A stretch of 48,191 bases of DNA from a virus. The stretch covers positions 1 through 48,191 of IMG/VR virus record IMGVR_UViG_3300008448_000148; one strand, 5' to 3'. The position numbers and the translations under genes were made by a program. The notes below the pieces were generated by a model. That model was not told the origin of the DNA. It saw only the letters and a program-made list of their open reading frames with translations, and ran no database searches. Position 1 is the stretch's first letter, and the number at the start of each line of letters is the position of its first letter. This document shows, piece by piece, positions 1,866 through 26,204 of the stretch.

Positions 1866-3242
1866 TTATAAATAGGGTATTGTTATGTTAAGCTCATATT
1901 TTATTGTACCGCAATCCCAAATCCTATCATAACCCAAATCTCGCATTATTTCCCATTCGGTTTTACTAGCATCTGCCCCTAAGGATAATAATACTGACTT
2001 TCTAAAATTGTAGCGATATAATCTTACTCTGTAATCCTTGGTGTACCAATAACTTGGAGCACTCTCAGACACCTTTTTAAATCCTATTTGCTCATATAGG
2101 TTTCCAACTGACCACCTCTTATCTGCATAGCTTATGATCTTTGTTGGTTTGTGTTTTTTAATGAAGTAGCTTAATAGCTTACTTGCGCCACCTAATACCA
2201 TTCCAGTTGATGCAAATCTTGACAACTCCCACTTACCCTCTTCTTTTATTGTTCCCATGCTATTACGTCCAACTGAAAAAGTCATAAGGGCAACTAGTAA
2301 ATCATTGTGAAATAGTCCTATTTTATGTTTTGATTTGTCACCACCTTGTATGTGGTTAGCTTCTAAAAACACATTGGCTTCTTTTGGTGTTAATTCTCTT
2401 ATAGTGCATTTTCTTGCATATATCCTATCACTACTACACCCTAGTATGTTTTTCAGCTTACCTTTAACTAATTCCTGCTTATTTTGCCACTCGTCTGAGA
2501 ATATGTGGATGAGTCTTATTCCTAGTTTTTCTAAGGTTTTAGTTTTGTTTAGGTGATATTTTCTATCTGCTATTTTTGATTCTGAGTGGTAATATAAGCC
2601 GTCATACTCTATTGCTATGCTTTTGGTTGGTATGTATATATCTATCTCCTTTCCATTTAACAGGGTTCTATTATTCTCTTCTATTAGGTCTGCAGAAATT
2701 AAAGACTTGATATAAGTTGTTATTTCCTTTTCGTCTTTTGATTGATTAGCAAAGCTAGGTGCATAAGGTTTTCCATATTTTGTTAGGCAGGTTTGAATTC
2801 GCTTTTTCATAGAGTCGTCACTGAACCTTGGATGATTGCTACCATACTTCTCTGCAGCGGTTTGTCTTATGGATTCAATTATATCTTTGTTCTTCGTAGG
2901 AAAAATATAGCCATACTTTTGTAGATTGGTTTTGTGTTGTTTCTCTAGCATACTATCCTTGTTTTTAGATATGTGTGCATATCTACATTTTTTATCACAA
3001 AAGGCTTTGGTTTCGCTTTTTAATGTTATAAATTCTTTTGCACAAAAAACACACTTTCTTGTCTCGGACCCTACCGTTCCTTTTAACTTTTTTGTATTAT
3101 TTATTTTTCTTGATTTACTCTTGCAACCCTCCTCAGTTTTACCATAATCTACCATACAAGACCTACTACAAAACTTCTTTTTTTGCGATTGATAACTTTC
3201 AAAAGATTGCTTACAAGACAAACAAGGTGTGATGACTTTCAT
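1866..3242 (-). CDS. large free-standing homing endonuclease: zinc fingers + Vsr-like nuclease + GNAT-like domain
   Basis: The 458 residues hold four parts. First come two treble-clef zinc fingers (Cys7/10/25/29 and Cys64/67/82/86). Next are three helical repeats around KYG at about 109-165, typical of DNA-binding regions of phage homing endonucleases. Then a PD-(D/E)XK/Vsr-like nuclease with EID at 199-201, IEYDGLYYHS at 211-220 and HIFSDEW at 246-252. Last is a C-terminal segment of about 265-430 with an N-acetyltransferase-like pattern (ELTPKEA, WELSRFAS, NLYEQIGF). It presumably cuts phage DNA and spreads its own gene. It sits between tail tube and tail genes, behind a terminator and with its own TATTTATA motif only 3 nt before the ATG. 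The GNAT-like assignment is by pattern only. Confidence 0.72.
   Translation of the reverse strand: MKVITPCLSCKQSFESYQSQKKKFCSRSCMVDYGKTEEGCKSKSRKINNTKKLKGTVGSETRKCVFCAKEFITLKSETKAFCDKKCRYAHISKNKDSMLEKQHKTNLQKYGYIFPTKNKDIIESIRQTAAEKYGSNHPRFSDDSMKKRIQTCLTKYGKPYAPSFANQSKDEKEITTYIKSLISADLIEENNRTLLNGKEIDIYIPTKSIAIEYDGLYYHSESKIADRKYHLNKTKTLEKLGIRLIHIFSDEWQNKQELVKGKLKNILGCSSDRIYARKCTIRELTPKEANVFLEANHIQGGDKSKHKIGLFHNDLLVALMTFSVGRNSMGTIKEEGKWELSRFASTGMVLGGASKLLSYFIKKHKPTKIISYADKRWSVGNLYEQIGFKKVSESAPSYWYTKDYRVRLYRYNFRKSVLLSLGADASKTEWEIMRDLGYDRIWDCGTIKYELNITIPYL
1867..1874 (-). promoter_or_regulatory. TATTTATA motif upstream of the 250-residue gene
   Basis: The coding strand reads CCTATTTATAATAAAGAATGT, immediately followed by the ATG at 1855. 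It overlaps the stop region of the upstream endonuclease gene. Confidence 0.55.
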
Positions 3243-23391: not shown

Positions 23392-24561
23392 TCATAAGAG
23401 CCAGTTAATGTCCTCTTGTGTATCTTGGTTTATTCTTATTTTCCAACTATCGTTAGTATTGCTAGGCTTGTATACTGAGGCTGCAGATCTAATATTTGAT
23501 ATTGCTGCTCTGTTGATGTCTATGCCAGCTTGCCTTAATCGTAAAGCTGTGTCTCTCACCCACAAACCTTGTCCAAAACTCATTACTAAATCATCATTAT
23601 ATCCACCAGCTGCTTCTGCCTTTCCAGTCTTGTAAATAAAAACTCGCAGTTCTTCAATAAGTCGCTTACTCTTTATTATACAGCTTCTTTCACGCATTAG
23701 CAAATCCAACTTACTAATAATTAAAGGTCTTACTTTGTGGGAGGTTGTAAAGCCAGCTATCAAGTTGGATCTGTCAGCTAAGTCATAACCTTTTGTTAAA
23801 TATTTGTCAGAATCTATTGCTGCATCTTTAGGAGTATAATATAAGTTTCTGTAACCTCTCTCTAATATTTGTTGAATAGCTGCCCATCCTACATTTGCAT
23901 TTTCTACTACAAGCAAAGCATCATTATATTCAGTGGAGATTGCTACAAGCATATTTCCATAATCTTTTGTACTCAACTGACCCTTGTATTCAGCTACTTG
24001 TGTAACAGACTCTACATCAATAACATGAAATGCTGAATAATCTGTTCCATCACCTCTAGCGACGTCAGCTGTTACAATATAGTTCTTTGAGTAGTCGGGA
24101 ACTTCCCACACCCAAAGATTTCCATCAAAACCTCTTTTTTCTAATGGTTCTTGAATAAAAGTTTGAGCATAGTAGTTTATCAAATCGGGAGGTATTACAG
24201 TGTTTCCTGAAGTTGAAAAGTCACAGTCGCAGTTGTGAACTGTTATATTATTTGCGTAGTATATGTGTGAATCAACCTCTATAAGGTCATAAAAACAATC
24301 TTGAGTTGCTCTCCTGTCTATATTTACTATTTTTTTCTTACCATCTTTACTATCCAACAACGTTCCTTTGCTTAAATCACAGGCATGATACTCAACTCCA
24401 TTTGAGTAAACTCGATGTTCCGGCGTACATGATAATTTACTACCGTCCTCAAAGGATATTGTATACCAATCACTTCGTGATACTTTTTTTAGTCCTTTAA
24501 AGGCTTCAAATCCGGTAGGAGTTAAGACTTCATAATTAATATTCTGTAATACTTCCGTCAT
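23392..24561 (-). CDS. 17: large terminase C-part (gp17 nuclease domain) preceded by C-half of a split intein
   Basis: The 389 residues consist of a 110-residue split-intein C-half (24232-24561) and the gp17 C-extein from Cys111. Intein marks are SCTPEHRVY at about 44-52 (block B, TxxH), CFYDLIEVDSHIYYANN (block F) and terminal His109-Asn110, followed by Cys111 as the +1 nucleophile. The extein has the RNase H-like terminase nuclease residues: Asp166 in TADVARGDGTD, Glu220 in LLVVENANVG and Asp323/324 in GYNDDLVMSFG. Trans-splicing with the N-part would restore a 523-residue terminase joined as AAQE-CDCDF. The ATG at 24561 overlaps the stop of the endonuclease ORF, suggesting coupled translation. 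Confidence 0.93.
   Translation of the reverse strand: MTEVLQNINYEVLTPTGFEAFKGLKKVSRSDWYTISFEDGSKLSCTPEHRVYSNGVEYHACDLSKGTLLDSKDGKKKIVNIDRRATQDCFYDLIEVDSHIYYANNITVHNCDCDFSTSGNTVIPPDLINYYAQTFIQEPLEKRGFDGNLWVWEVPDYSKNYIVTADVARGDGTDYSAFHVIDVESVTQVAEYKGQLSTKDYGNMLVAISTEYNDALLVVENANVGWAAIQQILERGYRNLYYTPKDAAIDSDKYLTKGYDLADRSNLIAGFTTSHKVRPLIISKLDLLMRERSCIIKSKRLIEELRVFIYKTGKAEAAGGYNDDLVMSFGQGLWVRDTALRLRQAGIDINRAAISNIRSAASVYKPSNTNDSWKIRINQDTQEDINWLL
24232..24561 (-). other. split intein, C-terminal fragment (110 residues)
   Basis: It covers Hint blocks B, F and G, ending VHN before Cys. Together with the 34-residue fragment at 25371-25472 it gives a complete mini-intein of about 144 residues. The break near the N-terminus is of the atypical kind known, from memory, for the AceL-TerL intein of an Antarctic-lake phage. 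Confidence 0.9.
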
Positions 24562-25378
24562 ATTTTAATCTTACTATTTTACAGTGTAATATATTCTTTA
24601 TAGTGTCTTGCCTTAATAAATCTCTTTTTTTCAAGGACCCATCCGGTTGAAAGTGGTGTTTTTCATCATACTCAAAAGCAATGTTTGTTGATAGACTATA
24701 CCCATCTAAATAATATCCAGCAACTTTAAATTCACCCCCATTTTCTGCGTGAATTAGGTCTGTTACACCCATGTCGTAAGCAAGCTGCTCTAACAGAGGT
24801 ATAGATTGCTTATTGTAGTTGACACTTTTTAGTCCAACTTTACTTTCAACTTGCCTTTGCATTGTAATTCTTTTGTGCTCTGAGCAGAAGCGACAGTGCT
24901 TACCAAAAGTGTACCTTTTACCACAAGAACATTTTGCTCTATTTAGATCATAGTCATATACTACAATTAACTTCAACTTTTGTTCTAAAGTTGTTTTTAT
25001 AGGTAGATTATTTGTGTGTGTTATAATCGACTTATATAAAGCGGGATTGTGTTTAATCATACTTCTATATTTAGTCTTACCTAAATAATTTTTCCACAAC
25101 TCATTCTCCTCTAATAAACTCTTCAATTTACTTTTTGTGTATACCTTTGCTGATTGCATGGTTGTTTCAACTTTTTTATAACCTTTTTTTACATAATCCG
25201 AATTATACTGAGACTTGCTCTTCTTTTCTGGATTAAATCCTATCTGCATGACCTCACGTTCACCAAACCGATCCCTATAATCTTTACTAGTCATGCTATG
25301 TTCCTTCATAAGATGCTGATGCAGCTGCTTGGCTCTATACACACCACATACACGACATATTAAAAGTTTATTGTTCAT
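24536..25378 (-). CDS. homing endonuclease between the split terminase halves (PD-(D/E)XK/Vsr-like)
   Basis: The 280 residues start with a C2H2/Ros-type zinc finger (Cys8, Cys11, His20/22/27). A basic helical region and a second zinc-binding patch follow (Cys150, Cys152, Cys162, Cys165). The C-terminal nuclease has Glu206 in GGEFKVAGYYLDGYS, FEYDEKHHF at 225-233 and a KIVRLKYD strand. This fits the Vsr-like EDxHD homing endonuclease group described with fractured, split-intein genes. It has no intein sequence of its own. Its ATG overlaps the stop of the terminase N-part and its stop overlaps the ATG of the C-part. It presumably cuts an uninterrupted terminase gene at the insertion point. Confidence 0.85.
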   Translation of the reverse strand: MNNKLLICRVCGVYRAKQLHQHLMKEHSMTSKDYRDRFGEREVMQIGFNPEKKSKSQYNSDYVKKGYKKVETTMQSAKVYTKSKLKSLLEENELWKNYLGKTKYRSMIKHNPALYKSIITHTNNLPIKTTLEQKLKLIVVYDYDLNRAKCSCGKRYTFGKHCRFCSEHKRITMQRQVESKVGLKSVNYNKQSIPLLEQLAYDMGVTDLIHAENGGEFKVAGYYLDGYSLSTNIAFEYDEKHHFQPDGSLKKRDLLRQDTIKNILHCKIVRLKYDGSITEY

Positions 25379-26204
25379 TTTGTAACCTCCTTTCTAGTTC
25401 AAAAATGCTAATTGTTTCAACTAGCCTAGTCTGTTTGTTTCTAATGGTTACTTCTGTGTTCCCTAGCACACACTCCTGAGCTGCTAGCCTCACTCCTAAC
25501 TCAGCATCTTGTCTATCTCTCCAAGCCTGATCTCTTTCAGGATGTACTTGCCAAGGTAACCTCACTGTCTTAAAGCTGTTTTCTCCTGCTTCTGCATTTA
25601 CCCACAATTTATGAAAAAAGTTACTTGTACCATTAGGTGTGGATAAGATTATACCTTGACCACCAGTTGATAAAGTTTGTTGCAAAGAAGCCCATAATTC
25701 TTCAGCTGAGTCGACGAATGCAGCTTCATCTATGATTACTAATGATAAAGCTTCTGAACGACCTGATGTTCCTGTACTAGAAACTGCTTTGACTTGTGAT
25801 CCGTTTGATAGTCTTAATGATAGTTTATTGTCCTCAACTGCTTTTAATTTTAACCAGCTTGGCAGATTTTCATACATAACCTTTATTTTTGTAACAAGGT
25901 TTTTGGAGGTTGTTTGGTCAATAGCTACTACTAGACAGTTTTTATCACTATTAAACAATATTAACCACAGTGCATATCCTGCAATTAAGGTTGATATACC
26001 TAATTGTCTTGATTTGAGAATGATCACACGATCATGTTGAAGAAAATCCTCTAGACTATCTTCTTGATATGGATATAGCTTGAAGGGAACTTTTCCTTTT
26101 TGTGGGTGTTGAATCACACAATACTTTTTCATGAAGTATGCTGGTGATTTTGCACACTTTACATACTCCTCTTTGATTATCTCTTTGAGGCTTTTTTCAT
26201 TCAT
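25368..26204 (-). CDS. 17: large terminase N-part (gp17 ATPase domain) ending in N-half of a split intein
   Basis: The 278 residues comprise the gp17 N-extein (1-244) and a 34-residue intein N-fragment from Cys245. The ATPase has a deviant Walker A KSRQLGISTL at 64-73 (Lys early, Ile in place of the usual Lys before Ser/Thr, as in many terminases). It also has Walker B VIIDEAA at 156-162 and the coupling motif STPNG at 188-192. The intein fragment begins CVLGNTEVTIRNK, a block A pattern (CLxGDTxV). The ORF stops 34 residues into the intein. ATP hydrolysis by this part drives DNA packaging after joining to the nuclease part. Confidence 0.94.
   Translation of the reverse strand: MNEKSLKEIIKEEYVKCAKSPAYFMKKYCVIQHPQKGKVPFKLYPYQEDSLEDFLQHDRVIILKSRQLGISTLIAGYALWLILFNSDKNCLVVAIDQTTSKNLVTKIKVMYENLPSWLKLKAVEDNKLSLRLSNGSQVKAVSSTGTSGRSEALSLVIIDEAAFVDSAEELWASLQQTLSTGGQGIILSTPNGTSNFFHKLWVNAEAGENSFKTVRLPWQVHPERDQAWRDRQDAELGVRLAAQECVLGNTEVTIRNKQTRLVETISIFELERRLQNEQ
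25371..25472 (-). other. split intein, N-terminal fragment (34 residues)
   Basis: Cys1 (codon 25470-25472) follows extein AAQE. The fragment carries block A and a short helix (ISIFELERRL) before the stop. It is slightly longer than the 25 residues I recall for the AceL-TerL N-fragment. It partners the C-fragment at 24232-24561. Confidence 0.9.

What the first reader, a model, noticed from the sequence alone, without database searches (positions are those of the whole stretch)
23392..26204. Fractured terminase gene with an atypically split intein and an interposed homing endonuclease
gp17 is encoded by two ORFs. The first ends 34 residues into an intein (CVLGNTEV... block A). The second begins with 110 residues carrying block B (TPEH), block F and terminal His-Asn followed by Cys. 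Between them is a free-standing Vsr-like endonuclease ORF, and the three ORFs overlap by 11 and 26 bases. A terminase of 523 residues should arise only by protein trans-splicing. Similar atypical split inteins are known from memory (AceL-TerL, 25 + 104 residues), and fractured genes with EDxHD-type endonucleases were described in metagenomes. This instance has its own sequence, a longer N-fragment and Asn in place of Asp in block A (GNT rather than GDT). The insertion point is a conserved Cys just before the nuclease domain.
Basis: partly seen in the sequence, partly recalled or inferred. Interest (0 to 1): 0.92.

Follow-up and report, generated by a model that had tools for sequence, protein, structure and literature searches.

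The report
Phage packaging gene split by intein
In this bacterial virus the gene for the DNA-packaging motor is broken into two pieces, with a DNA-cutting enzyme gene sitting in the gap; the two protein pieces carry the halves of a self-splicing "intein" that should weld them back together, an arrangement already known but here shown, with many relatives, to be a mobile and repeatedly rearranged module.

Summary
On the minus strand, TerL (gp17-like) is encoded by two ORFs: 278 aa (TerL 1-244 plus a 34-aa intein-N) and 389 aa (a 110-aa intein-C plus TerL 245-523). A 280-aa nuclease ORF lies between them, overlapping by 11 and 26 nt. Intein-C is a Hint domain: a profile built without the window gives E=1.2e-25, and its AlphaFold model best matches CatC (6dsl, TM 0.80), the engineered consensus of AceL/GOS-TerL. 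Intein-N is supported by shuffles and by relatives. Uninterrupted relatives encode the 523-aa protein at the same place; the closest (L002, 89% identity) is empty. At least eleven further viral contigs (L255-L266) carry the same TerL family, split intein and nuclease family. Dozens more, and cultured phages, have hinge-split TerL inteins with GIY-YIG or other nucleases, or none. It is therefore a new member of a known kind (a "fractured gene" with an AceL/GOS-TerL-type intein), not a new system. GNT in block A and the 34-aa N-fragment are not distinctive. Added here: the module is mobile, its nuclease slot varies and is sometimes empty, and insertion sites 6 bp apart are used. Trans-splicing and homing are inferred, not shown.

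The parts
25473..26204 (-). TerL N-extein (residues 1-244; ATPase domain)
   Evidence: PF03237 E=2e-9, phrog_5989 E=6.7e-43; 59% identical to Flavobacterium phage immuto TerL; collinear with uninterrupted TerL L002-L046
25371..25472 (-). Intein N-fragment, 34 aa, Cys1 and block A (CVLGNT), ends after the helix-like segment ISIFELERRL (split site S2 type, by sequence alignment)
   Evidence: S2 definition from PMC13014065
25368..25378 (-). 11-nt overlap of TerL-N ORF and nuclease ORF; AGGAGG lies 7 nt upstream of the nuclease ATG (25386-25391)
24536..25378 (-). Free-standing putative homing endonuclease, 280 aa, with invariant GGE216, D225-GY, N232, E236, E239, H242, R256 and near-invariant D253
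   Evidence: alignments A3 and A5; homologues inside fractured TerL genes L255-L266
25262..25372 (-). N-terminal Ros/MucR-like zinc-finger segment of the nuclease (residues 3-39)
   Evidence: PF05443 E=3.6e-5, 1.2 bits below the gathering cut-off; conserved in L255 and L256
24536..24561 (-). 26-nt overlap of nuclease ORF and TerL-C ORF
24232..24561 (-). Intein C-fragment, 110 aa: block B (CTPEH), block F, HN terminus
   Evidence: CatC 6dsl E=2e-11, profile E=1.2e-25, AF2 pLDDT 87.5 and Foldseek 6dsl TM 0.80
23392..24231 (-). TerL C-extein (residues 245-523, begins Cys+1 CDCDF; nuclease domain) and stop
   Evidence: T4-type gp17 structures 3c6a/3cpe E about 1e-7; 51% identical to immuto TerL

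Best explanation
This is a 'fractured' terminase gene. Two half-proteins are translated from overlapping ORFs. The 34-aa IntN on the first associates with the 110-aa IntC on the second to form a Hint fold. Class-1 trans-splicing (Cys1, block B TxxH, penultimate His, terminal Asn, Cys+1) then excises the intein and joins residue 244 to 245, giving the 523-aa TerL. The interposed nuclease ORF is most likely a homing endonuclease that recognises the uninterrupted AAQE|CDCDF region of terL in co-infecting phages, so that repair copies IntN, nuclease and IntC into it. The insertion is tolerated because splicing restores TerL. Shown: anatomy, homology, fold of IntC, empty-site and filled-site relatives, patchy distribution. 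Inferred: that splicing occurs, that the nuclease cuts, where it cuts, and homing.
For: Exact anatomy. Hint homology and fold. IntN test. Splice residues conserved: H49, N110 and C111 invariant, H109 and D92 at least 90%. Empty-site TerL at 89% identity (L002) and many more. TerL tree: the 10 split rows need 8 label changes, at least 6 forced by well-supported branches, and the window is sister to an empty gene at 100/100. Same TerL family, split intein and nuclease family in L255-L266. Codons -4 to +4 around the site are among the most conserved nucleotides of the stretch. The intein persists without a nuclease in L237/L240/L251, which match L235 minus the nuclease ORF, and fused into one ORF in L229, so TerL appears to depend on the intein rather than on the nuclease.
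Against: No expression or splicing data. IntN alone is weakly significant. No elevated nucleotide identity to L002 at the junction, so no trace of recent co-conversion. The nuclease could not be tied by sequence or fold to a characterised homing enzyme. No other public viral contig holds this exact junction.
Confidence: 0.88

Rival explanations
1. Genes in pieces: the ATPase and nuclease halves work as two polypeptides without splicing, as reported for a phage ribonucleotide reductase split by a homing endonuclease (cited in PMC10448857). The intein remnants would be passive.
For: The break lies at the boundary between the two TerL domains; the precedent is cited.
Against: All splicing residues are intact. 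Nuclease-free relatives keep a full intein, split or joined in one ORF. Relatives as far as T4-like phages of Vibrio, Serratia and Providencia keep both intein halves.
Confidence: 0.06
2. Recently decayed element: the intein or nuclease is no longer active and the virus is defective at this locus.
For: Metagenomic contig of one virus; no functional data.
Against: All three ORFs are open and the conserved residues of intein and nuclease are kept.
Confidence: 0.05
3. Assembly artefact: the three ORFs come from one continuous gene broken by misassembly.
For: Single record (G000, 48,191 bp, linear); exact junction not found in other contigs.
Against: The same arrangement occurs in independent contigs L255, L256, L259, L260, L263, L264 and L106 and in cultured phages PSTRCR_127 and 92A1 with another nuclease.
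Confidence: 0.01
4. RNA-level splicing (an intron) joins the halves.
For: Homing endonucleases also ride in group I introns.
Against: No Rfam family reaches its gathering score anywhere in the window, while a complete split Hint domain is present.
Confidence: 0.01

Closest known systems
AceL-TerL / GOS-TerL / Cat atypically split inteins
   Same: Same host protein and hinge region, Hint fold (6dsl TM 0.80), split after the first helix (S2), short IntN (25-37 aa) and long IntC (about 104 aa)
   Different: About 31-37% identical to Cat-type IntC; inserted 2 codons upstream (QE|CDC instead of QExx|C); TerL of a Flavobacterium/Microcystis-phage-like lineage; Cat-like loci found here mostly carry a GIY-YIG ORF, not this nuclease
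Fractured genes (Dassa et al. 2009, NAR 37:2560; paper not held, recalled from memory)
   Same: Conserved enzyme broken in two by a split intein with a free-standing endonuclease gene between the halves; a Vsr-related nuclease family in about half of them
   Different: The recalled list covers DNA synthesis and repair enzymes; here the gene is the packaging terminase
Split gp17 of cultured T4-like phages (Aeromonas PX29 17A/17B; Providencia PSTRCR_127; Serratia 92A1; Vibrio K469, Va1, EniLVp02)
   Same: Hinge-site split intein at the same split position, overlapping ORFs
   Different: GIY-YIG or other nuclease, free, fused to either half, or absent
Campylobacter phages CP21 and IBB_35 terL (PMC3322345)
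   Same: TerL interrupted by inteins and nuclease ORFs
   Different: Other insertion sites (near Walker B); described by the authors as an intein plus an intron

Membership tests
Fractured gene with split intein | Conserved enzyme encoded by two ORFs, each ending or beginning with half an intein | tested here: met
Fractured gene with split intein | Free-standing endonuclease ORF between the halves | tested here: met
   280-aa ORF; homologues in the same position in L255-L266; cleavage not tested
Fractured gene with split intein | Halves are joined by trans-splicing | not testable with these tools
   residues intact; needs co-expression
AceL/GOS-TerL-type atypically split intein | Hint fold, IntC most similar to Cat consensus among solved structures | tested here: met
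AceL/GOS-TerL-type atypically split intein | Split after first helix with IntN of about 15-37 aa | tested here: met
   34 aa; alignment with relatives; helix by homology, not modelled; literature values
AceL/GOS-TerL-type atypically split intein | Insertion at the same codon of TerL as Cat-type relatives | tested here: not met
   QE|CDC here versus QExx|C there, 6 bp apart; not a defining feature of the intein type, but of the exact allele
AceL/GOS-TerL-type atypically split intein | Cys1 (or Ser1), TxxH, His-Asn end, Cys+1 | tested here: met
EDxHD (Vsr-like) homing endonuclease | E/D/(E)/H/D catalytic pattern | tested here: met
   E216, D225, E236, H242 invariant, D253 at least 90% in 27 sequences; assignment of these residues to the named motif is by eye
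EDxHD (Vsr-like) homing endonuclease | Sequence or fold match to I-Bth0305I or Vsr | tested here: inconclusive
   no PDB profile hit; Foldseek only weak, several PD-(D/E)xK-type nucleases, none at E<=0.001; relatives match DUF559
T4-type terminase large subunit | gp17-like ATPase plus nuclease domains, collinear with intact relatives | tested here: met

The most novel reading that the evidence does not exclude
The hinge of TerL holds a split intein that acts as a reusable landing slot. Nucleases of different families (EDxHD-like, GIY-YIG, MTES_1575/DUF559 type, DUF7487/HNH-like) enter and leave the same split position, fused to the N-half, free, fused to the C-half or absent, and the break can heal into one ORF. 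Insertion sites 6 bp apart would reflect different nuclease specificities.
Probability: 0.45. Interest if true: 0.6.

Novelty: new member of a known kind. Interest (0 to 1): 0.45.

Why it matters
It confirms from raw sequence a naturally split intein with a short N-fragment, a type that is useful for protein labelling and semisynthesis. It also places that intein in a large set of natural variants (with nuclease, without nuclease, joined in one ORF, empty site) that makes the origin and reversal of gene fracturing directly testable.

Tried and rejected
Rfam scan for an intron: nothing. IntN against PDB: no hit. HEN profile against PDB: no hit. Bacillus phage 0305phi8-36 (source of I-Bth0305I) is not in the phage collection under two accessions, so the direct EDxHD comparison could not be made. 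Exact-junction search for a second copy: none. Genome collection: none. Co-conversion signal against L002: none. An IntC tree to count nuclease exchanges is mostly unresolved; two changes for GIY-YIG are forced, but a single origin of the EDxHD-like group is not excluded. Dassa 2009, Bachmann 2015, Taylor 2011 and Stevens 2018 are not held. L102, L103, L104, L108 and L115 were classed automatically and not all checked by hand.

Full report
What is there. On the minus strand three ORFs overlap: 25368-26204 (278 aa), 24536-25378 (280 aa) and 23392-24561 (389 aa), with overlaps of 11 and 26 nt. The first is a terminase large subunit up to residue 244 followed by CVLGNTEVTIRNKQTRLVETISIFELERRLQNEQ. 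The third begins with 110 residues ending VHN and continues CDCDF... as TerL. Joined, TerL is 523 aa. TerL assignment: PF03237 and several PHROG terminase families, T4-type gp17 structures. The nearest cultured relatives for TerL and portal are Flavobacterium phage immuto and Microcystis phage Mel-JY01 at 48-59%. The window is a 48,191-bp linear virus record.

Is it an intein? IntC: phmmer finds CatC (6dsl, E=2e-11) and gp41-1. A profile built from relatives without the window gives E=1.2e-25, the only significant hit among 1226 six-frame ORFs. The profile of A4 (which includes the window) finds CatC at 1.1e-35, gp41-1 and VidaL. The AlphaFold2 model (pLDDT 87.5) best matches 6dsl, TM 0.80, rmsd 1.8. 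IntN is short: top-ranked but E=0.23 in the window-wide search. With the position fixed, 1 of 20,000 shuffles and 0 of 420 real C-starting 34-mers score as high, and phmmer to the IntN of L105 gives 1.6e-6. H49, N110 and C111 are invariant and H109 and D92 nearly so in 28 sequences.

Relatives of the gene. TerL genes of the same family are uninterrupted in L002-L046 (L002: 89%). At the same point, others (L047, L049, L051, L054, L071, L076, L081 and more) carry contiguous inteins about 1.1 kb long; I read them as LAGLIDADG-type by eye, not by profile. L255-L266 (L265 is the same contig as L106) carry the split intein with a homologous nuclease. In L257 and L266 the nuclease is fused to the N-half. 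Window, L255, L256 and L266 insert at QE|C; L257, L258, L259, L260, L263, L264 and L106 insert at QECD|C, 6 bp downstream. The three nucleases with the N-terminal zinc-finger segment (window, L255, L256) are all QE|C. This is suggestive only, because L266 lacks that segment yet uses QE|C.

Mobility. In a TerL tree of 47 rows the 10 split rows need 8 changes, at least 6 forced by starred branches, and the window is sister to the empty L002 (100/100) within a clade of empty genes. Loci were found partly by searching for the nuclease and intein, so frequencies are biased, but the scatter is not explained by that. The joined site AAQE|CDCDF has invariant first and second codon positions in 47 non-redundant sequences, as expected of a protein-critical site and suitable for a homing target. 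No co-conversion trace to L002 is seen.

The kind is widespread. Cat-type fractured TerL genes are abundant in IMG/VR (L112, L117, L177-L254), mostly with a 189-aa GIY-YIG ORF. L237, L240 and L251 match L235 with the nuclease removed, still split; L229 is one open 678-aa ORF with a contiguous mini-intein. Cultured phages show a free GIY-YIG ORF (PSTRCR_127, 92A1), GIY-YIG fused to the C-half (PX29, annotated so by its depositors), an N-half fusion (K469, 1.244.A), another nuclease fused to the C-half (Va1), and no nuclease (EniLVp02). Which state is ancestral is not established; loss and gain of the nuclease are both possible.

The nuclease. It has invariant GGE216, D225, E236, E239, H242 and near-invariant D253. 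Relatives match DUF559 or MTES_1575 weakly. The model (pLDDT 84.8, pTM 0.53) gives only weak Foldseek matches, several of them PD-(D/E)xK-type nucleases.

Known or new. Literature read here: AceL-TerL IntN 25 aa, GOS-TerL 37, Cat 30+104 (PMC11766414); atypical split sites S1 and S2, with AceL/GOS at S2 after helix 1 (PMC13014065); a fractured PolB with HNH nuclease in Pseudomonas phage MIJ3 (PMC6892783). Dassa et al. 2009 is not held; its content is from memory. On this basis the find is a new member of a known kind.

Noticed in passing
window 1866-3242 (-): 458-aa ORF with DUF7487 and MTES_1575 (restriction-like) matches near a T4 baseplate gene: probably a second, free-standing homing-type nuclease of another family.
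   Followed up: partly
L086 (Campylobacter phage CP21) and L087 (IBB_35): TerL holds two further inteins near Walker B. CP21 appears to have the second as a contiguous mini-intein where IBB_35 has a MobE-like nuclease between the halves (and a frameshift); the published 'intron' (PMC3322345) may instead be a second intein.
   Followed up: partly
L229, L235, L237, L240, L251: Near-identical TerL inteins in three states: split with nuclease, split without nuclease, and joined in one ORF.
   Followed up: yes
L082 4044-6131: NrdA split by a canonically split intein (long N-fragment with block B, short C-fragment) with no nuclease between.
   Followed up: no
L094 (Vibrio phage VP-1), L100, L107, L111, L114, L116, L117, L118: TerL genes with a second intein at the Walker A or B motif besides the hinge intein.
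   Followed up: no
L119 3859-3973: Hinge intein with Ser at position 1 (SLAHNT) and Cys+1, like the unusual GOS-TerL combination.
   Followed up: no
window 25386-25391 (-): AGGAGG 7 nt upstream of the nuclease start lies inside the intein-N coding sequence; no comparable site precedes the TerL-C start.
   Followed up: no
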